IMG/VR virus record: IMGVR_UViG_3300027797_000012
Coordinates: 1-64,000 of that record
From: a virus
Strand: one strand, 5' to 3'
DNA: 64,000 nt
Shown here: one piece after another, positions 11,643 through 63,740 of the stretch
Layout: every line of letters starts with the position of its first letter
Position numbering within the stretch: position 1 is the first letter of the stretch
Made by a program: the position numbers and the translations under genes
The notes under the pieces: model-generated
Seen by the model: only the letters and a program-made list of their open reading frames with translations
Databases searched by the model: none
Told to the model about the DNA's origin: nothing

Positions 11643-13037
11643 CTACCTGACCTTAAATGTCCCACCACCACGAAACGCAGGCAATTTACGTTGCCCTGGC
11701 GACTTAGCCGTAATCCTTCCACCCATGAACCCTGCTGGTGGCTTAATGAGCAGGGCTGTGAGGGCATGAACTAGTGCGTCCACCCTATCCGGCGACTTTC
11801 CTTCTCCTGGGATCCAGGAGGCCATCTGAGACTCTAGATCACCCATGTATCCGACGTGGTGCACACGATTTTGCTCATAGGCAAGGGTGATAGGCTCAGC
11901 CCGCAGGGCTTTGCCATACTTAGAGTGAACCTCAAGGACCTTTACCGTTGGGTCAATGGTGTTAATGGCGTTTCTTACCAAGGCGCCACCTTGATTGACC
12001 TCAGCGACCACTGGGCATCCCCATTTACGTGCCATAGCGACAACCTTTTGAGCCCAGACGGTGGGTGAGCCTAGAATGGAAGCATCTTCAAGTATCCAGC
12101 TCTGACGTTTGTAAAGATCTCTATCTCCCGTAGAGGCGCAGACGATAATCCCGCATTCATCTCGTGGGTTTTCAGCTACCGATGGGTCAACCCCAATTAC
12201 GCGAAGAGGGACGCCTTGAGGCATAACCATTTCACGGCCTTTGTCGATAAGCTCCATTGTCCATAGAGCTCCTTCAACATCTGAAAGCATCTCGCCGTAA
12301 AGCTCTTGCGCAGCTAGACGAGTTCCTTGGTAAACTCCAAGAATAGCATCAAGGTAAGCTTGAGAAAGGTTTCCGGAGTTATCTAGCGTAGAGCCACGGG
12401 TGATAGCTACGCGCCCAGTAGTCTCGGCTTCTTTAATAAGTGAGTACAAAAGTGGCACGCGCTTCGGTGTGGTAGTAATCATCATCTTAGGATTTTGCCC
12501 AAGACGTACACCCACGCGTAAGTTGTCAAAGGCTGTCATGCCAGCTGCGTCAGGAGTTTGTCGCCAAGCGGCAACCTCATCTCCCCAAGCGTGTGTGAAC
12601 TGAGGTCCACGGAGAGAGTCAGGCTCATCAGCTGTGAAGCATGTGGCGGTATTTCCGTTAGGCCAAGTCAGTCTTCGCTTTGACGGCTCATACAAAGGGC
12701 GTTCACTTGGAGCTGAAACATTTATGATTCCCGATTCACCTTCAACGATAACGTCACGCACGTCGGCAGCTGTACGAGCGACTAGAGCAAAACGGCGTTG
12801 GCCAGTGTCGGTATGCTTAGCTTCTTCTCTTACCCACTCGGCTGCAGCTCTAGTCTTACCAGCACCGCGACCTGCGAGGTACATCCATATAGACCAATCG
12901 CCTTGTGGAGGTTGCTGCTCTGGTCGAGACCAGACAGTCCAATCCCACATGAGATTGTCCATGTCAAAATCCGCAAGGATTTCGTTACGCTCTTCCTCTG
13001 GCAGCATAGCTAGATGCTCCATTATACTTTTACCCAT
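11643..13037 (-). CDS. terL: Terminase large subunit
   Basis: 464 residues, normal length for the family. The ATPase part begins with Walker A AGRGAGKTRAAAEW (~residue 53) and has the acidic pair of Walker B in HAWGDEVAAW. MMITTTPKRVPLL is the coupling motif. The C-terminal RNase H-like nuclease shows GVDPSVAENPRDECG with its first catalytic Asp and DRVDALVHAL near the end. It cuts concatemeric phage DNA and drives packaging through the portal. Its ATG lies just after a TACTAT -10-like element with no ribosome binding site, so translation is probably leaderless. Confidence 0.93.
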   Translation of the reverse strand: MGKSIMEHLAMLPEEERNEILADFDMDNLMWDWTVWSRPEQQPPQGDWSIWMYLAGRGAGKTRAAAEWVREEAKHTDTGQRRFALVARTAADVRDVIVEGESGIINVSAPSERPLYEPSKRRLTWPNGNTATCFTADEPDSLRGPQFTHAWGDEVAAWRQTPDAAGMTAFDNLRVGVRLGQNPKMMITTTPKRVPLLYSLIKEAETTGRVAITRGSTLDNSGNLSQAYLDAILGVYQGTRLAAQELYGEMLSDVEGALWTMELIDKGREMVMPQGVPLRVIGVDPSVAENPRDECGIIVCASTGDRDLYKRQSWILEDASILGSPTVWAQKVVAMARKWGCPVVAEVNQGGALVRNAINTIDPTVKVLEVHSKYGKALRAEPITLAYEQNRVHHVGYMGDLESQMASWIPGEGKSPDRVDALVHALTALLIKPPAGFMGGRITAKSPGQRKLPAFRGGGTFKVR

Positions 13038-13050: not shown

Positions 13051-13064
13051 CATTAAAAAAGAAA

Positions 13065-13092
13065 AAGCTAGACGGTTTTAGCCGCCTAGCTT
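13065..13092 (-). terminator. Terminator between the deacetylase region and terL
   Basis: Stem AAGCTAG(G)CGG/CCG(T)CTAGCTT on the minus strand, followed by TTTTTCTTTTTTAAT. It terminates RNAs started at 13.2 kb and beyond. Confidence 0.85.
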
Positions 13093-13146
13093 CTTCTCTA
13101 CCTGAGAAAGGATGTCATCACCTGATGGTGGATTGGAGTACGCCAC
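13078..13146 (-). CDS. 22-residue peptide, tentative
   Basis: GTG start preceded by GAGGG (8 nt). The peptide MAYSNPPSGDDILSQVEKKL ends two glycines later, with its TAA inside the terminator loop. It sits on a short transcript with its own promoter at 13197 and terminator at 13065. The RNA may instead be non-coding. Confidence 0.42.
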   Translation of the reverse strand: MAYSNPPSGDDILSQVEKKLGG

Positions 13147-13196: not shown

Positions 13197-13205
13197 ATTA
13201 TATCA
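13197..13205 (-). promoter_or_regulatory. Promoter overlapping the deacetylase stop codon
   Basis: Extended -10 TGATATAAT, whose TGA is the deacetylase stop. It can drive a ~125-nt RNA that ends at the 13065 terminator. Confidence 0.6.
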
Positions 13206-14123
13206 GGAAACGTCTCGATAAATCTGCGAAACAACTTTCGCCCAAATTACCGGAGTGTGCTCAAGTGGTTGATAACCACCAGCTCCTCCAATAAGAACTC
13301 TGCCTTGCGAATGCTTATTAGCTATACGAGCTACAGCCTTAGCCGCGTACTCGTATCCTGGATAATCAAACTGCAATGAAGACAGAGGATCTGTCTTGTG
13401 CGCATCGGCTCCAGTAGCTAGAAGAATAACATCTGGCTTGATCTCATCCGCTAATGCTTCTATCTCATCCATTGCCTTCTTGAAAGCTTCATCACCGCTG
13501 TTCGCCGGTAGCGCCCAGTTGTAAACTCCTTCGTCTGGTGAATGCCCGCTTCGCCCAGTACCTGGAAAGATAGTTCCATCATGGATACTCGCAGTAACAA
13601 TATCGTAGTGATCTCGTAAAAGATTCTCTACGCCATCGCCATGGTGCGCATCCCAGTCAATGTACATAACCTTTAGGCCTTTGAGATCAAACTGACGAGC
13701 AGCCCAAGCCATATCGTTGAATACACAGAACCCAGATGAGTGGTCGTACTGCGCATGGTGCTTAGCTCCCTGAGGATTAAACGCAACCTTTGCTTCACCT
13801 GCTAAGATCTTTTCAACAAGACGAACTGTGCCCGCAAACATCTCTAAGGCAACCTGACCCTTTTCAAGACTGTTTGGACGCCATTCTCCGCAGTGCCCAT
13901 CATCCAACACCTTAGAAACATAGTGTGAATCGTGTACGAACTGTACTCGATCTCGATCTATGTCTGTGGCATTAGGCGTGACAAGCTCAATATCAAATTC
14001 TTCTGCAAGAAGATTTGTAGCAAGCTTAGCTCGCATAGGATTAGTCGGATGGTTATCGCCTTCAGATCCAAGCTTCCACTTTAAGTAAACATCATCGTAA
14101 GCTACATGTAGTTTACTCGGCAT
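13203..14123 (-). CDS. Zinc deacetylase, histone deacetylase/acetylpolyamine amidohydrolase superfamily
   Basis: 306 residues, close to bacterial AcuC/HDAC-like length. The active-site set is complete: the His pair in PQGAKHHAQYDHSSG, the glycine-rich GFCVFNDMAWAA, the zinc ligands in MYIDWDAHHGDGVE, and the third ligand in LLATGADAHKTDPL. A conserved GGAGGY near the C-terminus supplies the loop that normally precedes the catalytic Tyr. Enzymes of this fold hydrolyse N-acetyl groups from lysines or polyamines. The gene overlaps the phosphatase gene by 11 bp. A host protein or an acetylpolyamine could be the substrate; the sequence does not decide. Confidence 0.9.
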   Translation of the reverse strand: MPSKLHVAYDDVYLKWKLGSEGDNHPTNPMRAKLATNLLAEEFDIELVTPNATDIDRDRVQFVHDSHYVSKVLDDGHCGEWRPNSLEKGQVALEMFAGTVRLVEKILAGEAKVAFNPQGAKHHAQYDHSSGFCVFNDMAWAARQFDLKGLKVMYIDWDAHHGDGVENLLRDHYDIVTASIHDGTIFPGTGRSGHSPDEGVYNWALPANSGDEAFKKAMDEIEALADEIKPDVILLATGADAHKTDPLSSLQFDYPGYEYAAKAVARIANKHSQGRVLIGGAGGYQPLEHTPVIWAKVVSQIYRDVS

Positions 14124-14631
14124 CTGGTGCTCCTAGCTGGAGTAGGTGCCTTTCAAAGTCCGCATTGCAAAGAACATACGCTGTTCGCTTGCTGCGCATC
14201 AAAGAAATTGCATCTGCAGCTTCATAGCCTTCCCGCATAAGAACGAGAGCTGTAGTCAGACCAGAACGGTTTAACCCAGCTTGGCAACGAATTAAAGTTT
14301 TGTTACCAGATTTCCAAGCGGTATGCGCATATTCAACTACACGCGAAAGCTTTTCCCAGTCGATGTGCTCGATGTTTGAATCATAAAAACCAAAACGCAA
14401 TTCATCAACTAACCAGTCGGCTGGCTTTGCCCATGCATAGAGTGTAATTACCGTATCGAAATCGTCCTTCGTGATTTCACGGCTCAAGCGTGTGTCGGCA
14501 GATGTTTCGATTGTGTCGTTATCATCAGTGCCACCGACCCAGAGACCAGGCAGGATCTCACTCCATAGAGGGAAGTCCCAGCTATCTAGCTCGTGTTTCG
14601 GGGCATACCCTTCTTCGATAATGCTTGCCAT
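14113..14631 (-). CDS. Dual-specificity protein phosphatase
   Basis: 172 residues from the ATG at 14631, chosen because AAAGGAG lies 6 nt upstream; the frame extends to 14667 without a ribosome binding site. The signature loop IRCQAGLNRSGLTTALVLM (near residue 127) contains the catalytic Cys and Arg of the CX5R family. An upstream Asp-containing stretch (SREITKDDFDTVITLYAWA) is typical of compact DSPs. It would dephosphorylate Ser/Thr/Tyr residues or another phospho-substrate. It overlaps the deacetylase gene and shares its promoter. Confidence 0.88.
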   Translation of the reverse strand: MASIIEEGYAPKHELDSWDFPLWSEILPGLWVGGTDDNDTIETSADTRLSREITKDDFDTVITLYAWAKPADWLVDELRFGFYDSNIEHIDWEKLSRVVEYAHTAWKSGNKTLIRCQAGLNRSGLTTALVLMREGYEAADAISLMRSKRTAYVLCNADFERHLLQLGAPDAE

Positions 14632-14677
14632 GTGTTCGTCTCCTTTGTCATTTGTGTCATTTGTCATTATATGTACT

Positions 14678-14686
14678 ATTATATCA
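14678..14686 (-). promoter_or_regulatory. Promoter of the phosphatase-deacetylase operon
   Basis: Extended -10 TGATATAAT on the minus strand in the short gap after the peptidase gene. Confidence 0.65.
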
Positions 14687-14709
14687 GGTTATGTTACTCG
14701 CGAGTACCA

Positions 14710-15276
14710 CTACTCTTCTTGCACGAAGGTGTGGATCTCTCCACCGGAGTAGATGTCATGCTGTATAGCTATTTCAATAGCTCGACGCAAAATCTTCTCC
14801 GCAGCTTCGGGAGTCTTAACTTTTCGATAGCTTAGAGCTTCTAAAGCTCCAAGCGCGATGTCTCCGCCGCTACCGGAGTAATAAACGTTCCTAGCTTCTC
14901 TATCCCAAGAGTAGTCATTAAAAATTGGATAGATAACTCCCTGGACCGAAACAATTAAGTTCGAGTCATGCTCCGCAGCTGCTCCGTCGTCCTTACCTTC
15001 GTAGCCAGCATCTTGAAATGCTTTTCTAAGCGAAGGTATGAACTTCTTAGTCATAAAGATGTCTAAGTTTTCAGTTCGAGTAGGCTTAGGCGCCTTCCAA
15101 CCAAATTGGGCAATGTTGCCACCGCGTGATGCACCGGAGACAGCAATTAGCGCTCCATTGTTTTGCACGATTTTATGCGTAGCAAGATCCATGTATCGAC
15201 CACCTTCATCAGATGCTCGTGAATCGCAACCGAGAACAGACCAGCCATCACCTTGTATTGCCGCAAGTGTAGTCAC
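14710..15276 (-). CDS. HslV/proteasome-beta-like Ntn peptidase
   Basis: 188 residues from a GTG at 15276, selected because GGAGAGGG lies 5 nt upstream; a TTG 15 nt earlier is in frame. With this start the protein reads M-TTLAAIQGDGWSVLGCDSR, so Met removal would expose Thr1 without a propeptide, as in HslV. Asp17 (GCDSRAS), a Lys near 34 (THKIV) and the SGSGGDIALGALEAL segment match the catalytic Asp, Lys and Ser region of proteasome beta and HslV. No alpha subunit or HslU is present in the window. It probably forms a self-assembled peptidase ring. Confidence 0.85.
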   Translation of the reverse strand: MTTLAAIQGDGWSVLGCDSRASDEGGRYMDLATHKIVQNNGALIAVSGASRGGNIAQFGWKAPKPTRTENLDIFMTKKFIPSLRKAFQDAGYEGKDDGAAAEHDSNLIVSVQGVIYPIFNDYSWDREARNVYYSGSGGDIALGALEALSYRKVKTPEAAEKILRRAIEIAIQHDIYSGGEIHTFVQEE

Positions 15277-15301
15277 TGGTTCCCTCTCCAAAAGACCTGG
15301 C

Positions 15302-15335
15302 TAAACGCCTGGGTTAAATATAACCCAAGCGTTTA
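15302..15335 (-). promoter_or_regulatory. Long hairpin upstream of the peptidase gene, possible attenuator
   Basis: 15-nt arms TAAACGC(C)TGGGTTA/TAACCCA(A)GCGTTTA with a 4-nt loop between the 15346 gene stop and the peptidase ribosome binding site. TCTTTT follows shortly after on the minus strand. It could terminate or attenuate part of the transcription entering the peptidase gene. Confidence 0.6.
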
Positions 15336-15345
15336 ACCTTTGTCT

Positions 15346-15678
15346 TTAGACTAGGTCGATTATCGCAACAGGTACTGTGACCAGTGCGGATTCTACGTCA
15401 CGGGTGATTGGATTAACCCGTGCGAATCTACCTGTAGGTGTTACAAGTTTAACCACAACCTTCTTCTGTTTCTTGCTTACCACGGTAGCTTTTTGACCTA
15501 CCATGTAACGAGTCCCAGTAAGACTGTTGAATACTACCGTATCACCTATGTGGTAGTCATTGATGGTGCGTTCACTGCGAGATGCAGTAAGACGATCCTC
15601 AATGGCTTCCTTTAGCTTTGTTAAGGAAGAATCATACACACCCGCGTTAACGCTGGCGATGATTACATCTATGTCCAT
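15346..15678 (-). CDS. Hypothetical protein, KOW/SH3-like
   Basis: 110 residues. Helical N-terminus, then a beta-rich section with IGDTVVFNSLTGTRYMVG and GQKATVVSKKQKKVVVKL, the spacing expected of a small SH3/KOW-type barrel. It has its own promoter and a TTTCC-type leader. Function unknown. Confidence 0.65.
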   Translation of the reverse strand: MDIDVIIASVNAGVYDSSLTKLKEAIEDRLTASRSERTINDYHIGDTVVFNSLTGTRYMVGQKATVVSKKQKKVVVKLVTPTGRFARVNPITRDVESALVTVPVAIIDLV

Positions 15679-23457: not shown

Positions 23458-24360
23458 TTACCAGTACTTTCGTTCGAATACCGTTACCGTACGGTAGGCG
23501 TTTTGTAGGGACGCCTTAACGTTATCCATTACCGTTCCTATGGCCAAGCCACCCGATAGCTCTCTAGCCAGTCTGGTAGCTACTGAGACCGTTGCACCTG
23601 AGGTACCCAGGCTGACCGCCTTTGTCCCCGTTACGTCGGTTACCGTCCATCGTCCCATGGCATACAGGTCTAGGTCCGGGCTGGAGTTCGATATCAGCAT
23701 GATGGGGTAGACCCAGCCTTGAATATTCTTGACCGTGTATCGGGTATCCGTTGCCCCTACCGCTATCGCCTGTGGTATACAGGCTGGGTAGTAAACTTTC
23801 TTTTGATCCGAGCCGTTACCCGTTGAAACAACAACCGGCACGTTAACCGAGGCTAGCCCAATGATTTGATCTTGTAATTTAGTTTCGATAGGGCATGCCG
23901 CTTCTCTGTACGCCCGTCCGAATGAGACTGATACCGCGCCAACATTTAGCCGTGCCGCATTGGCAGATACCCAATCGAGAGCGAGTGATAGAGCTTTAGT
24001 TGTGTATGTGGTTGCACGTCCTTTAGACATGCCGACAACACGAACAAACACAATCTTGACGTCTGGGTTTACCGTTACTGCAACCGACGCCATCTGCGTG
24101 CCGTGACTCATAGCTTTGTCTGTTACAAGCTTTGGGTCTAGCGTTGCCGCACCTGGGCCAACCATACTTGACTTGCCGTTTGGACACAAGCCGTACTCGA
24201 TGAAGCATGCTTCTTCGATGACCGCACTCTTTGCCCAGTCGAGATTTGTGTTGATACCGGAGTCGATGATGACAAGAGTTTTATCGCTTGCCGCATTCGC
24301 CGGAGTTGAGAGTAGAGCTAAGCCTAAGGCTGCACATATAAGTAGCACTTTAGTTTTCAT
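23458..24360 (-). CDS. Secreted subtilisin-like serine protease
   Basis: 300 residues. A signal peptide (KVLLICAALGLALLSTPANA) is followed by the S8 triad in order: Asp in TLVIIDSGINTN, His in MSHGTQMASVAV, oxyanion Asn in VVSTGNGSD, and Ser in LGTSGATVSVATRLA. All catalytic residues are present, and there is no obvious propeptide or C-terminal anchor. Exported proteases of this kind are rare in phage genomes. It may cut host surface or competing proteins, or act in lysis. Its start has AAGAAGGAACC upstream and overlaps the 48-residue gene. Confidence 0.88.
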   Translation of the reverse strand: MKTKVLLICAALGLALLSTPANAASDKTLVIIDSGINTNLDWAKSAVIEEACFIEYGLCPNGKSSMVGPGAATLDPKLVTDKAMSHGTQMASVAVTVNPDVKIVFVRVVGMSKGRATTYTTKALSLALDWVSANAARLNVGAVSVSFGRAYREAACPIETKLQDQIIGLASVNVPVVVSTGNGSDQKKVYYPACIPQAIAVGATDTRYTVKNIQGWVYPIMLISNSSPDLDLYAMGRWTVTDVTGTKAVSLGTSGATVSVATRLARELSGGLAIGTVMDNVKASLQNAYRTVTVFERKYW

Positions 24361-24496
24361 CGGTTCCTTCTTTCATTATGTCGTTGTGTTTGGTTTTACG
24401 TGTATACTTCTTTTTATTAGTAAGTGGACGAGCTGCGTTGGATCTCCGGAGTTCAAGTAATCTCCGGAGTTCTTCTTTTGATTTTGGTAGTTTCAT
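24350..24496 (-). CDS. 48-residue basic peptide
   Basis: Lys/Arg-rich (SKEELRRLLELRRSNAARPL and KKKYTRKTKHND). ATG has no clear ribosome binding site and lies just after a long hairpin. Overlaps the protease start by 11 bp. Confidence 0.45.
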   Translation of the reverse strand: MKLPKSKEELRRLLELRRSNAARPLTNKKKYTRKTKHNDIMKEGTDEN

Positions 24497-24509
24497 AATA
24501 GTTGTGGGA

Positions 24510-24555
24510 CCGGTGTGGCCGGGGACGATCTGACGGAAGGATCCGACCACACCGG
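24510..24555 (-). other. Hairpin with an anti-ribosome-binding-site loop
   Basis: 9-bp stem CCGGTGTGG/CCACACCGG. In the transcribed strand the loop reads ATCCTTCCGTCA, the exact 12-nt complement of TGACGGAAGGAT at the ribosome binding site of the VWA gene that ends just upstream (26363-26374). Confidence 0.6.
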
Positions 24556-24561
24556 AGCTTG

Positions 24562-26358
24562 TTAGGCAGCCCGCTGCCCAATCTTTGTAAGTGCCTTCGC
24601 TGCTGCAGAACCAATCTGCACCGCAGCTTCTGCTGGGTCTCGTACATCTGAAAGAATCACAGTATCCGGACCTGCAATTCCACGAGCGTATCTGCCCTCT
24701 TCGAAAGGAATCCATAGAACTGCAACTCCAGCTTTTTCGCAAGCGCGAACCCACGCTTTAGCTTTTGTTCGCTCATCATCTGTATAGCAACCATCGCTAA
24801 CAATTACGAGTAGACGAGCGCCAGTTCCATTGAGAAGATTTAGAGAACCATCAAGTGCCTTGAACGCCTTATCGAACTTTTCAGTTCCATCAGGTGCAGT
24901 GTACACAGTAACTTGGTCAAGGTGCTGTCCTGGCTTAAGCGTAGGGAACACATCCTGTCCGTAGTAAACCATTGCGCATCTACCTTGAACACGTCGAACA
25001 GCTTCTGACATCGCCCAGGCAGTTGCTGCCATAGGCTCCATGGCTGATGCCATTGAACCGGAGATGTCAACCATAACTCCAACGTTAAGCGTTGGGTCAT
25101 CTGTATGACGACGCACAGTTCTACGCCAAGGTTCTGCATGCATCATAGGATTCACAACTTTGTAAGCTGCTTCCTGAACCATTGCGCGAGTACGCAAGCG
25201 ACCGGGAGGAAGAATAGATTTGATCTCCTTCTCATCGCGCTCACGGTACTTAGCTTTTTCTAAGAGCTGAGCAATCTTAACTGCTGCCGCACGCTCAGGA
25301 CCGGTAGGATTACGAGTCTCTTTGATACGAGAGTGAGTCTTGAATGACGACATCTCTCCGGTAGCTTTTGCGAATACTTCACTAGCAGTTTTCTCGTGGT
25401 CGCGTTGCTGCTTAGCAGCTATGCTGCGCATGTCAACAACGTCTTTCCACTCTTCAGCTTGCTCTTGATCTTGAGCTTCATCGTTTACAGAGATAGCAAT
25501 CTCTTCAGATGCTTCTTCCAAAGCGTCCATGACTTCACCAAGTGGTCCATCCATGAGAATAAGAATTCCCTTTTCACCAAGGGGAGCTTCGTCGTCGCCT
25601 TTGTCTTCAGCAAGCTTAGAGATGATGTCGTCCCATTCTTTTGCAAGAACGATTAGATTTGTTGGATCGCTATGTAGCTCGTGCTTTTGAAAGCGCAACC
25701 ACACGTCGCGAAGCTGCGCGAGCACCTCTGTACCGAAGAAGTTAAGTAGAAGTTCTTTTACTTCTAGCACATCGTCTGCGTCTAGCGAACCTGCATCAAC
25801 ACGAGCAAGTACTAGTCCAGCCATTCGTCCCATAGAACGAGTAGTTGTAGTTTCAGCGAGTGATGATTTAATGTCTTCAAGAATGATATCCATTGCGCAA
25901 GCGCGAAGGAACACTCTGTTGTTTGGATAGTTTTCTACACCGAGAGCTTCGATACGAGTCTCTTCAAGAAGTGTAAGTGCGTCGAACACATTGCGACTTA
26001 CTTCTTTGTCTTCGCTAATCTTTAGAAGATCGTAGCGTGAGTACCGAGCGTGCAGTGCTTCATGGAAGATAGCTCCTGCGCCTCGTGGATAGTTAAATTG
26101 AATTGTTCTATTGCGAATATCGCCAATAGTTTCAGGAGATACTCCTGTGCCGAAAGCTACATCCACGTTGACCTCAACTTCAGCCATTGGTGGATTAAAG
26201 CATGCAGGCGCTGGTCCTCCAGCTCCGGGGCCAACGTATGCGACAATGTCGCTGCGTCCTGCCCAAGTATTCACGAGCTCACCCAGCTGGGCGCCTACGC
26301 GTAGCCACTCTGGCTGCGTACGTTCCGCTCGGGTCATTGATAACTTAATGTGTCCCAT
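24562..26358 (-). CDS. VWA-domain protein with HExxH metallopeptidase-like domain (DUF2201/CobT type)
   Basis: 598 residues. The N-terminal half contains GAGAIFHEALHARYSRYDLL with the zincin HExxH motif. A long acidic middle (EEASEEIAISVNDEAQDQEQ) follows. The C-terminal VWA domain has the MIDAS motif VMVDISGSMASAM, then WAMSEAVRRVQGRCAMVYYG and LLVIVSDGCYTDDERTKA. Such proteins pair with MoxR-type AAA+ ATPases in metal insertion or remodelling complexes; the ATPase here is encoded 480 bp upstream across a tRNA. The leader is TGACGGAAGGAT. Confidence 0.86.
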   Translation of the reverse strand: MGHIKLSMTRAERTQPEWLRVGAQLGELVNTWAGRSDIVAYVGPGAGGPAPACFNPPMAEVEVNVDVAFGTGVSPETIGDIRNRTIQFNYPRGAGAIFHEALHARYSRYDLLKISEDKEVSRNVFDALTLLEETRIEALGVENYPNNRVFLRACAMDIILEDIKSSLAETTTTRSMGRMAGLVLARVDAGSLDADDVLEVKELLLNFFGTEVLAQLRDVWLRFQKHELHSDPTNLIVLAKEWDDIISKLAEDKGDDEAPLGEKGILILMDGPLGEVMDALEEASEEIAISVNDEAQDQEQAEEWKDVVDMRSIAAKQQRDHEKTASEVFAKATGEMSSFKTHSRIKETRNPTGPERAAAVKIAQLLEKAKYRERDEKEIKSILPPGRLRTRAMVQEAAYKVVNPMMHAEPWRRTVRRHTDDPTLNVGVMVDISGSMASAMEPMAATAWAMSEAVRRVQGRCAMVYYGQDVFPTLKPGQHLDQVTVYTAPDGTEKFDKAFKALDGSLNLLNGTGARLLVIVSDGCYTDDERTKAKAWVRACEKAGVAVLWIPFEEGRYARGIAGPDTVILSDVRDPAEAAVQIGSAAAKALTKIGQRAA

Positions 26359-26385
26359 TGTAATCCTTCCGTCATTGATAGGTTA

Positions 26386-26394
26386 ATTATATCA
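26386..26394 (-). promoter_or_regulatory. Promoter of the VWA gene
   Basis: Extended -10 TGATATAAT followed by a ~20-nt leader. Confidence 0.68.
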
Positions 26395-26404
26395 GGTTTA
26401 TTGG

Positions 26405-26674
26405 TTAATCCCAACCACGGCATCCGCAGTAGAAAGTGTCCTGTGCGTCTCCACGGGGAACGAAGTCATGGACTCCGTAGTTATGCCCAGGGCGACCGGT
26501 GGTTGGATTGATTTCCATGTGTGTGACTATGCTGTACCCACAAGAGAGACAACTGCTTGTAGCTCTGTCGCTACCTTCGCCATTGAATTGAAAGAATGGC
26601 AAGCTTGTGGCTGATGCACTTTCGCTTGTGCAGGATACGCACTTAGCGGTTCTTCCTTCGAGAGTAATTTCCAT
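26405..26674 (-). CDS. Zn-ribbon protein
   Basis: 89 residues. KCVSCTSES and SSCLSCGYS give two CxxC pairs, and FYCGCRGWD ends the protein. GACGGAAGGAAC leader. Unknown function. Confidence 0.66.
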   Translation of the reverse strand: MEITLEGRTAKCVSCTSESASATSLPFFQFNGEGSDRATSSCLSCGYSIVTHMEINPTTGRPGHNYGVHDFVPRGDAQDTFYCGCRGWD

Positions 26675-26701
26675 TTTAGTTCCTTCCGTCTGTTAGGTAC
26701 T

Positions 26702-26710
26702 ATTATATCA
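26702..26710 (-). promoter_or_regulatory. Promoter for 26405-26674
   Basis: Extended -10 TGATATAAT between the tRNA 3' end and the gene. Confidence 0.66.
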
Positions 26711-26716
26711 GGTAAG

Positions 26717-26791
26717 TGGGGAGAGTGGGGCTCGAACCCACGCGACGACCGGAGTATAAGTCCGGAGCTCTACCAACTGAGCTACCTCCCC
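26717..26791 (-). tRNA. tRNA-Ile (anticodon UAU)
   Basis: Complete cloverleaf: acceptor GGGGAGG/TCTCCCC, D-arm AGCTCAGTTGGTAGAGC, anticodon stem CCGGA/TCCGG with loop CTTATAC (anticodon TAT), and T-arm GTGGG-TTCGAGC-CCCAC. CCA is not encoded. It reads the AUA codon and lies between the MoxR-type ATPase and Zn-ribbon genes. Confidence 0.93.
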
Positions 26792-26840
26792 GTGCGTGAA
26801 CCCTGGGCACCCATACCCAGGGTTCACCGCGCGAAGGGGA

Positions 26841-27836
26841 TTATATCTTCGCTGGTCGACACTCCTCGCCATACACTCTGGTGAGAACATCCGCAACGAC
26901 GGGGCGGTCCAACTCCGGAGCGGAGGCGATTAGGTTCGCTACTGCGAACTTCGTGCCGAACGATTTAGAGATGTCACGGAACGCAAGTAGCTCACGCATC
27001 TGTGGACACCAACCGCATTCGCCAGAAGCCTGGCGACGATTTATATTTTGCGCAACTGTAACTACCTGCGCTGAGGCTCCAAGCTTCTTAGCGAGTGACC
27101 AGTCGGTAGTCATCTCAACTTGAATCACGAAGCGAGATAGAAGAGCTTCAGATAGTCGAACTCCAGGCGCATTTGGATTTGTAGCTCCGATGACGTAGAA
27201 CCCGTCTTTAGCTTTAACAGTTCCACGCTCTGGATTAGCAGTGACTGTAATCTCACGGCGACCGTCCATAAGTCCATAAGCTCCTGAAAGAACCTTAGGA
27301 TCAATAAGACCAATCTCATCGATTAGCAGTGGCACGCCTTCTTCGGCAGCTTTTAGTAGTGGGCCATCTTCCCACAGGAATCCACCTGCAGGAGTTTGAA
27401 TGAATCCACCAATTAAGTCTGAAAGCTCAGTGTCGCCTGAACCCATAATTGTGTACATCTTTTCGAACGCAGCTTCAACGAGTGCAGTTTTACCGCAACC
27501 TGGAGCTCCGTACAGAAGAATAAACTGTTGGTCCATACGCGCCTTGCGAAGAACCATGACGTCGTCATGCTCTCCCCATTTACGAGAGTGGTACATCTCG
27601 CCATTAGGACGAGCGTAGGAATCTTCTCCTACAAGGGCATCTGCAGATAACACTGGCGCTACTTTCTTGGTTGGGGTTGCTCGATGAGTAACCTTACCCT
27701 GAGCGAGAAGCATTGAGTCAAGTGCACTCGAGATCTCTGCATTGGTAGATTGAGCGAGAATATGCGTGATAGATTCGGTAGTTCCGACAGCAACTGAGTC
27801 AATTGCTGTTCTTACATCTTCTAATACTGTTGACAT
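26841..27836 (-). CDS. MoxR/CobS-type AAA+ ATPase
   Basis: 331 residues. Walker A LLYGAPGCGKTALVEAAF (~residue 110), Walker B VPLLIDEIGLIDPKVL, sensor 1 IGATNPNAPGVRLSEALLSR. The N-terminal ~85 residues are a separate helical domain. This class remodels substrates together with VWA-domain partners; the only such partner in the window is the downstream VWA gene. A ring ATPase might also feed the HslV-like peptidase, for which no dedicated unfoldase is present, but that is speculation. ACGACGAAAGGAAAG leader. Confidence 0.87.
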   Translation of the reverse strand: MSTVLEDVRTAIDSVAVGTTESITHILAQSTNAEISSALDSMLLAQGKVTHRATPTKKVAPVLSADALVGEDSYARPNGEMYHSRKWGEHDDVMVLRKARMDQQFILLYGAPGCGKTALVEAAFEKMYTIMGSGDTELSDLIGGFIQTPAGGFLWEDGPLLKAAEEGVPLLIDEIGLIDPKVLSGAYGLMDGRREITVTANPERGTVKAKDGFYVIGATNPNAPGVRLSEALLSRFVIQVEMTTDWSLAKKLGASAQVVTVAQNINRRQASGECGWCPQMRELLAFRDISKSFGTKFAVANLIASAPELDRPVVADVLTRVYGEECRPAKI

Positions 27837-47586: not shown

Positions 47587-47814
47587 TTACTTTTCTAGTG
47601 TTTCAAAGATTTCTTTACATGTCTTACAGACAGGAAACTTCTTCCCGTCTCTTGTTGGAACCCACAGTTTCCCACATAGAGCTACAGCAGGCTTGCCTTC
47701 TACGAAGGCTTCCATCATCTGGTCGCGGTGAACATAATGCGAAAACTTGTCATGTTCCCCGTCACTCGTCCGGACATCTGCTTCAGTATCTAACTCGATA
47801 ATTACGTCACTCAT
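47587..47814 (-). CDS. DUF3039-like protein
   Basis: 75 residues from ATG 47814. HYVHRDQMMEAFVEGKPAVA, LCGKLWVPTRDGKKFPVC and KTCKEIFETLEK fit DUF3039, an actinobacterial zinc-knuckle family of unknown role. TATAAT 7 nt upstream suggests leaderless translation. Confidence 0.8.
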   Translation of the reverse strand: MSDVIIELDTEADVRTSDGEHDKFSHYVHRDQMMEAFVEGKPAVALCGKLWVPTRDGKKFPVCKTCKEIFETLEK

Positions 47815-47821
47815 AGACACA

Positions 47822-47827
47822 ATTATA
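47822..47827 (-). promoter_or_regulatory. Leaderless promoter for the DUF3039 gene
   Basis: TATAAT, 7 nt before ATG; divergent from the SAM-decarboxylase-like gene. Confidence 0.55.
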
Positions 47828-47872
47828 CTTAATATAGTATATAGTGTCTACCTATTACCGAAAGGAGAGCCT

Positions 47873-48307
47873 GTGGCTCTGCATAATCATTTATTACTTA
47901 ATGCCAAGGTCAACCAGCCTCCCGTGGATACCGCCGCTGCAATTACCTGGCTAACTGAGCTAGTTGACGCAATTGACATGAAGATCGTTCAAGGTCCTTT
48001 TGCCTCATACATAGAAGCAGAAGGAAACCGCGGATTAACCGCGTCTGTAATGATCGAGACCTCCCACATCGCTTTTCACGTCTGGGATGAAGAGTCACCC
48101 GCGCTTCTACAGTTTGACCTCTACACTTGCTCGACTTTGCCATTCTTAGACGTTCTTAACAAGATCCACGAGTTTATGGATATTCAAGACTACCGATATA
48201 TGATTTTTGAGCGAGAAGAAGAATTCAGAATGCTACACAAGTCTGTGGTAACAAACTACATGCCAGGAGTTACTCCCCCTCCTGGAGCTTTAATAGAACA
48301 ACCTTAA
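47873..48307 (+). CDS. S-adenosylmethionine decarboxylase-like protein
   Basis: 144 residues from a GTG with AAAGGAGAG upstream. [20 protein letters not shown] followed by FDLYTCSTL aligns with the SpeH/SpeD core (ESHxSIHTWPE...FTCG). The residue before the Ser that becomes pyruvoyl is Thr instead of Glu, so self-processing may differ. The N-terminal third differs from host enzymes. If active it would make the aminopropyl donor for spermidine. Confidence 0.75.
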
Positions 48308-61542: not shown

Positions 61543-61667
61543 CAAATTACACTAATGTAACCAAGTAAATAGTATAAACTTTTGGTAATATCTACTTGTA
61601 GTCTGCTATAGGTAGCAGTGCGCTAGCTTGCACTCGTGCCGTGCAACAGCGAAAGAACGGAGCGTCT

Positions 61668-63740
<2,073 letters not shown>

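What the first reader, a model, noticed from the sequence alone, without database searches (positions are those of the whole stretch)
13203..15276. Deacetylase, dual-specificity phosphatase and HslV-like peptidase clustered in one phage locus
Three enzymes with apparently intact active sites are encoded side by side: HDAC-fold deacetylase (zinc ligands DWDAHH and GADAH), CX5R phosphatase and Thr1-type peptidase. Each can erase or destroy protein modification states (acetyl, phosphate, polypeptide). The first two overlap by 11 bp under one promoter. I know of no described phage system combining them. A role in resetting host signalling is inference.
Basis: partly seen in the sequence, partly recalled or inferred. 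Interest (0 to 1): 0.78.

Follow-up and report, generated by a model that had tools for sequence, protein, structure and literature searches.

The report
Phage deacetylase–phosphatase pair, separable peptidase
A lake phage carries a protein-deacetylase-like enzyme and a phosphatase that travel together through evolution and also sit together in rare bacterial gene clusters thought to fight phages, whereas the neighbouring proteasome-like peptidase is a separate phage gene.

Summary
The three genes are real and their catalytic residues are intact, but the "trio" is really a pair plus a neighbour. Across phages anchored on the adjacent terminase gene, the HDAC-fold deacetylase and the dual-specificity phosphatase (DSP) are present together or absent together: 34 both, 6 neither, 0 single, among 40 contigs with at least 5 kb upstream. 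In one clade the two genes lie on opposite sides of the terminase and are still both kept. The proteasome-like ("HslV") peptidase is found without the pair, and the pair without it. The closest cellular relatives of both enzymes (44-53% identity) come from freshwater actinobacteria. There, an HDAC of the same subfamily (invariant FNPQGAKHHA motif) lies beside a DSP, within operons carrying a Nudix/NrtR regulator, ARPP, vWA, TY-Chap3, Macro or ADP-ribosylglycohydrolase genes. These are the parts of the predicted "ARG-centric" anti-phage systems (PMC9503650), whose main text does not mention an HDAC. Phages of this lineage that lack the pair usually carry another gene of the same operons instead. 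I infer a modification-eraser pair exchanged between phages and such conflict loci. Its substrate is untested. New variant of a known kind.

The parts
13203..14123 (-). HDAC-fold Zn deacylase of the FNPQGAKHHA subfamily (306 aa)
   Evidence: PF00850 9.5e-56; catalytic residues invariant in 34 relatives; AlphaFold pLDDT 90, HDAC fold
14113..14667 (-). Dual-specificity-type cysteine phosphatase (184 aa; C128-x5-R134, Asp96), overlapping the HDAC start by 11 bp
   Evidence: PF00782 2.4e-10, PHROG 10650 1.8e-18; motif conserved in 44 sequences; no structure model made
14710..15276 (-). Proteasome-family (T1) peptidase, GTG start then Thr1; a neighbour, not judged part of the pair
   Evidence: PHROG 1040 1.8e-25; start and Thr1/Asp17/Lys33 conserved; fold nearest BPH/HslV; separable from the pair
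15299..15338 (-). 18-bp hairpin just upstream of the peptidase ribosome-binding site (terminator-like or regulatory)
   Evidence: number of such hits in the region not above chance, but the stem is long
13058..13099 (-). 18-bp terminator-like hairpin between HDAC and terminase genes
   Evidence: same caveat
15346..15678 (-). 110-aa protein of unknown function upstream of the peptidase, usually kept with it (also in DSL-LC01)
11643..13037 (-). Terminase large subunit, used as unbiased anchor
   Evidence: PF03237 3.4e-22; anchor survey

Best explanation
The HDAC and the DSP are one functional two-enzyme module; the peptidase beside them is an independent lineage gene. The module has been exchanged between phages and rare conflict operons of freshwater actinobacteria. 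In those operons an HDAC of this subfamily and usually a DSP accompany a Nudix/NrtR repressor, ARPP, vWA and TY-chaperones, an unnamed 'MWIFT' protein, and in some an ADP-ribosylglycohydrolase or Macro protein. Most likely mechanism (inferred): during infection the zinc enzyme removes acyl groups from lysines and the cysteine phosphatase removes phosphate from a shared set of modified host or phage proteins, or from the phosphoribosyl remnants of ADP-ribosylation, which blunts host marking or signalling that would restrict the phage. Shown: gene identity, intact active sites, purifying selection, all-or-none co-occurrence, survival of the pairing after rearrangement, shared ancestry and context with the cellular operons. 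Inferred: substrate, timing, direction (counter-defence versus takeover).
For: Terminase-anchored survey: 34 contigs have both, 6 neither, 0 single. Whole-record Pfam searches: 8 of the lineage records have both, 7 neither (Fisher p=1.6e-4, not corrected for kinship). In L121, L125, L133, L134 and L141 the DSP gene lies beyond the terminase in the opposite orientation yet is kept. HDAC and DSP trees agree on the main groups, and this rearranged clade is sister to the cellular clade in the HDAC tree (100/99) while the terminase tree puts phages without the pair as its nearest relatives, which suggests a separate acquisition of the pair. Cellular loci: DSP near the HDAC in 8 of 17, 3 of the other 9 being cut off inside the HDAC gene; ARG-system neighbours in 13 of 17 against 0 of 63 loci of other HDACs. 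Neighbours identified as ARPP-1, ARG, Macro, NrtR_WHD, TY-Chap3, NT5C, HD and vWA. The HDAC subfamily was found in 6 of 400 genomes of one bacterial family, patchy like an accessory system. Rim residue Leu247, aligned with HDAC6, suits acyl-lysine rather than HDAC10-type polyamine specificity (PMC5454378).
Against: No substrate, expression or phenotype data. HDAC occurs without a DSP in distant Magritte and E3 and without an adjacent DSP in L143, L148, L151, L153 and L156. The window phage has no Macro, ARG or Nudix hit. The conflict role of the cellular operons is itself a published prediction, and none of 10 proteins tested matches PADLOC. Co-occurrence counts are from related contigs.
Confidence: 0.5

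Rival explanations
1. The pair works on a soluble ADP-ribose or nucleotide derivative (a host alarm molecule or RNA-repair by-product) rather than on proteins: the DSP removes a terminal ribose phosphate and the HDAC an acyl group, silencing the signal.
For: Cellular operons include ARPP, NT5C, HD and Nudix proteins that suit nucleotide or ribose chemistry; PMC9503650 argues that phage ADPr-processing domains mostly counter soluble ADPr derivatives.
Against: HDAC-fold enzymes are known to cleave N-acyl amides (family knowledge), not O-acetyl-ADP-ribose; the operons also carry predicted peptide-binding chaperones (vWA, TY-Chap3), which point to proteins.
Confidence: 0.25
2. The HDAC is an acetylpolyamine amidohydrolase that frees polyamines for translation or DNA packaging, with the DSP unrelated in function.
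For: The window also encodes an AdoMet decarboxylase homologue at 47747-48307; giant-virus acetylpolyamine amidohydrolases are proven (PMC9992855).
Against: The decarboxylase family was found in only 1 of the 13 other HDAC-bearing records searched, including long ones; the residue matching HDAC10's specificity glutamate is Leu in 32 of 34 sequences (PMC5454378); it does not explain retention with the DSP. Bacterial-type APAH uses other determinants, so this is not excluded.
Confidence: 0.1
3. One reading: deacetylase, phosphatase and peptidase form one three-enzyme system that erases protein modification states.
For: The three genes are adjacent, co-directional and conserved in order in 30 of 40 contigs.
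Against: The peptidase occurs with no pair in DSL-LC01 and many contigs, and the pair with no peptidase found in L056, L125, L133 and L141; other genes separate peptidase and DSP in several relatives; tblastn found no peptidase homologue in the cellular operon loci.
Confidence: 0.08
4. The genes are passengers in a variable slot upstream of the terminase, with no shared function.
For: The slot is variable: phages without the pair usually carry the MWIFT gene there.
Against: Low dN/dS, all-or-none co-occurrence and retention after being split around the terminase.
Confidence: 0.07

Closest known systems
ARG-centric ADP-ribose conflict systems (Iyer et al. 2022, PMC9503650)
   Same: Cellular loci of this HDAC carry ARG with fused DSP, ARPP, Nudix/NrtR regulator, vWA, TY-Chap3, Macro, HD and NT5C.
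   Different: The paper's main text does not mention an HDAC; most of the cellular loci seen show no ARG nearby (found in L145, L147, L149, L152); the phage carries only HDAC and DSP, without ARG, Macro or Nudix hits.
Bacterial HDAC superfamily (HDAH, KDAC1, lysine deacylase 5zmp, Burkholderia 5ji5)
   Same: Same fold (TM about 0.8) and full catalytic set.
   Different: About 25% identity; the PPGHHA-type loop reads FNPQGAKHHA, invariant in the subfamily.
Phage dual-specificity phosphatases (PHROG 10650; mycobacteriophage and Gordonia phage 'PTPc')
   Same: Same family, about 27-35% identity.
   Different: The window DSP is closer (44-52%) to DSPs beside cellular HDACs; no close HDAC homologue was found in the mycobacteriophage or Gordonia phage records.
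Proteasome homologue BPH / HslV (PHROG 1040)
   Same: Ntn-hydrolase fold, Thr1, Asp17 and Lys33 equivalents.
   Different: Nearest structure is BPH rather than HslV; no HslU gene was identified, though only part of the genome was annotated.

Membership tests
HDAC (arginase/deacetylase) superfamily | Zn ligands Asp/His/Asp, His-His dyad, catalytic Tyr on the HDAC fold | tested here: met
HDAC (arginase/deacetylase) superfamily | Zn-dependent deacylase activity | not testable with these tools
   needs enzyme assay
HDAC10-type polyamine deacetylase | Glutamate gatekeeper at the active-site rim (HDAC10 E274) | tested here: not met
   Leu247 in 32 of 34, Ala and Gly in the other two; position mapped from the HDAC6 alignment, role from PMC5454378
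Dual-specificity phosphatase | C-x5-R loop with upstream general-acid Asp | tested here: met
   C128-x5-R134, Asp96; PF00782 above cut-off
Proteasome / HslV (T1) peptidases | N-terminal Thr exposed by Met removal, Asp17, Lys33, Ntn fold | tested here: met
HslUV | Partner ATPase HslU | tested here: inconclusive
   none identified among the proteins annotated; an AAA_5 protein with a vWA_CoxE partner exists; not all ORFs scanned
ARG-centric ADP-ribose conflict system | ADP-ribosylglycohydrolase in the neighbourhood | tested here: not met
   no PF03747 in the phage record; present in cellular loci L145, L147, L149, L152
ARG-centric ADP-ribose conflict system | Rhodanese-phosphatase-superfamily phosphatase coupled in the neighbourhood | tested here: met
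   DSP beside the HDAC in phage and cell
ARG-centric ADP-ribose conflict system | Protects the host from phage | not testable with these tools
   a published prediction only

The most novel reading that the evidence does not exclude
HDAC plus DSP is the core of an undescribed HDAC-type branch of the ADP-ribose conflict operons of freshwater actinobacteria. Phages of one lineage carry either this pair or the operon's MWIFT protein as alternative modules taken from, or aimed at, the same host system.
Probability: 0.35. Interest if true: 0.8.

Novelty: new variant of a known kind. Interest (0 to 1): 0.64.

Why it matters
If true, HDAC-type deacylases join the enzymes of ADP-ribose-linked phage-host conflict, and a predicted class of host defence gains a specific phage counterpart that can be tested. 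It would also show lysine deacylation as part of bacterial immunity or its evasion, a little explored idea. The pair-versus-MWIFT alternation in one phage lineage gives a natural experiment for finding what the cellular operon does.

Tried and rejected
(1) The trio as a unit: rejected by separability of the peptidase. (2) Polyamine role: weighed because of an AdoMetDC homologue in the window, lowered by lack of co-occurrence and the Leu gatekeeper. (3) Common promoter: no convincing sigma-70 site before the DSP gene, and TATAGTACA was no clear regulon motif (22 found, 14.7 expected by shuffling). (4) ARG, Macro and Nudix in the own genome: none found. (5) PADLOC: no hits. (6) Literature on phage HslV, or on HDAC with DSP in phages, gave nothing direct; the follow-up paper on the rhodanese-phosphatase superfamily, which I recall from memory, was not found in the library, so HDAC may be mentioned there. 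(7) The high L019/L021 DSP dN/dS (0.72) is probably an alignment artefact and was ignored. (8) Loci L154 and L159 come from one MAG and are not independent.

Full report
Observation. The three ORFs exist as described. The HDAC (13203-14123, -) matches PF00850 at 9.5e-56. Its active-site residues are invariant in 34 phage and cellular relatives, and its model (pLDDT 90) is an HDAC fold with TM about 0.8 to 5ji5, HDAH and HDAC6. The DSP (14113-14667, -) matches PF00782 and carries C128-x5-R134 and Asp96; it was not modelled. The peptidase starts at the GTG at 15276, giving Met-Thr-Thr; this start and the Thr1/Asp17/Lys33 equivalents are conserved. Its nearest solved fold is the proteasome homologue BPH, then HslV and 20S beta subunits. 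dN/dS is low for all three genes. The 11-bp overlap is correct; the single promoter is not supported.

Pair, not trio. The window lies in a 130,553-base virus record. A search with the HDAC gave 80 viral loci, nearly all with all three genes, but that search is biased towards HDAC carriers. I therefore anchored on the terminase. Of 40 contigs with at least 5 kb upstream, 30 have the upstream 110-aa gene, peptidase, DSP and HDAC; 1 has all but the peptidase; 3 have only DSP and HDAC; 4 have only the peptidase (with or without the 110-aa gene); 2 have none. HDAC and DSP are thus both present in 34, both absent in 6, and never single. Whole-record Pfam searches agree: 8 lineage records have both and 7 neither; the only HDAC-alone cases are distant phages Magritte and E3. 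In L121, L125, L133, L134 and L141 the DSP gene sits beyond the terminase in the opposite direction, while HDAC stays upstream. Retention despite separation argues for selection on the combination rather than hitchhiking. The peptidase is present without the pair in complete phage DSL-LC01 (terminase 80% identical) and in many contigs, and no peptidase was found in the L056, L125, L133 and L141 records, which are partial.

Origin. The closest cellular HDACs (44-53% identity) are in freshwater actinobacteria: Aurantimicrobium, Rhodoluna and other Micrococcales, plus one Nocardioides. They share the invariant motif FNPQGAKHHA with the phage proteins. A DSP 44-52% identical to the window's lies near the HDAC in 8 of 17 such loci, usually directly adjacent. 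The surrounding genes are ARPP-1, ADP-ribosylglycohydrolase with fused DSP, Nudix/NrtR regulator, vWA, TY-Chap3, HD, NT5C, Macro and a PD-(D/E)XK nuclease. Thirteen of 17 loci of this subfamily have such neighbours, against 0 of 63 loci of other HDACs. These parts are those listed by Iyer et al. 2022 for ARG-centric systems predicted to counter viral ADP-ribosylation; HDAC is not named in the main text. The subfamily was found in only 6 of 400 genomes of one bacterial family.

Trees. HDAC and DSP trees agree on the main groups. The rearranged phages are sister to the cellular clade in the HDAC tree (100/99), while their terminase places them among phages of the window's lineage, next to phages lacking the pair. 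This suggests that the pair was gained at least twice in this terminase lineage, each time together. Support in the DSP tree is weaker (87/88), and repeated loss is not excluded.

Alternative module. A protein starting MWIFTETGF, encoded directly upstream of the HDAC in several cellular operons, has homologues in phages of this lineage that lack the pair. None of the pair-bearing records searched has it, and none of 29 loci found with it carries HDAC or DSP. The two modules therefore alternate, mostly between peptidase and terminase. Whether this reflects related functions or just a shared slot is unknown.

Mechanism. Shown: two intact, selected enzymes that are kept together and shared with conflict-type operons. 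Inferred: they act together on a common target. HDAC chemistry, the Leu gatekeeper (PMC5454378) and the chaperones in the cellular operons favour modified proteins; nucleotide-handling neighbours keep a soluble ADP-ribose derivative as the main rival. A polyamine role is less likely because the AdoMet decarboxylase family is absent from most other HDAC-bearing records. The phage record itself has no ARG, Macro or Nudix hit, so it carries a subset, not the system.

Limits. Many contigs are fragments and related to each other, so the p-values overstate the independent evidence. No literature beyond the open library could be checked. Substrate and phenotype remain untested.

Noticed in passing
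L142:2015-2344, L083:14702-15031, L155:4358-4900: A roughly 110-aa 'MWIFT' protein without Pfam family sits beside the HDAC in cellular operons and replaces the HDAC-DSP pair in related phages; distant relatives occur in Yersinia, Morganella, Enterobacter and Aeromonas phages.
   Followed up: partly
window 47747-48307 (+): AdoMet decarboxylase homologue (PF02675, 1.2e-10); such phage homologues can be ornithine or arginine decarboxylases (PMC9992855). Found in 1 of 20 related records.
   Followed up: partly
window 23458-27836 (-): Subtilase next to a vWA_CoxE-like protein and an AAA_5 (MoxR-like) ATPase.
   Followed up: no
L268:223-6045 (-), record 124223-130045: 1940-aa protein with a weak PI3/PI4-kinase-like match near its C-terminus (2e-4, below Pfam cut-off), perhaps a kinase domain in a large virion protein.
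   Followed up: no
window 61641-63740 and L265:5-19066: Several collagen-repeat proteins followed by glycosyltransferase, 2OG oxygenase, epimerase and methyltransferase genes, suggesting decorated collagen-like fibres.
   Followed up: no
window 15299-15338 and 13058-13099: Two 18-bp hairpins bracket the peptidase-DSP-HDAC genes; conservation in relatives not checked.
   Followed up: no
L143:2806-10747: Aurantimicrobium HDAC without DSP sits among NERD helicase, GmrSD restriction and T5orf172 helicase genes, which looks like a defence island.
   Followed up: no
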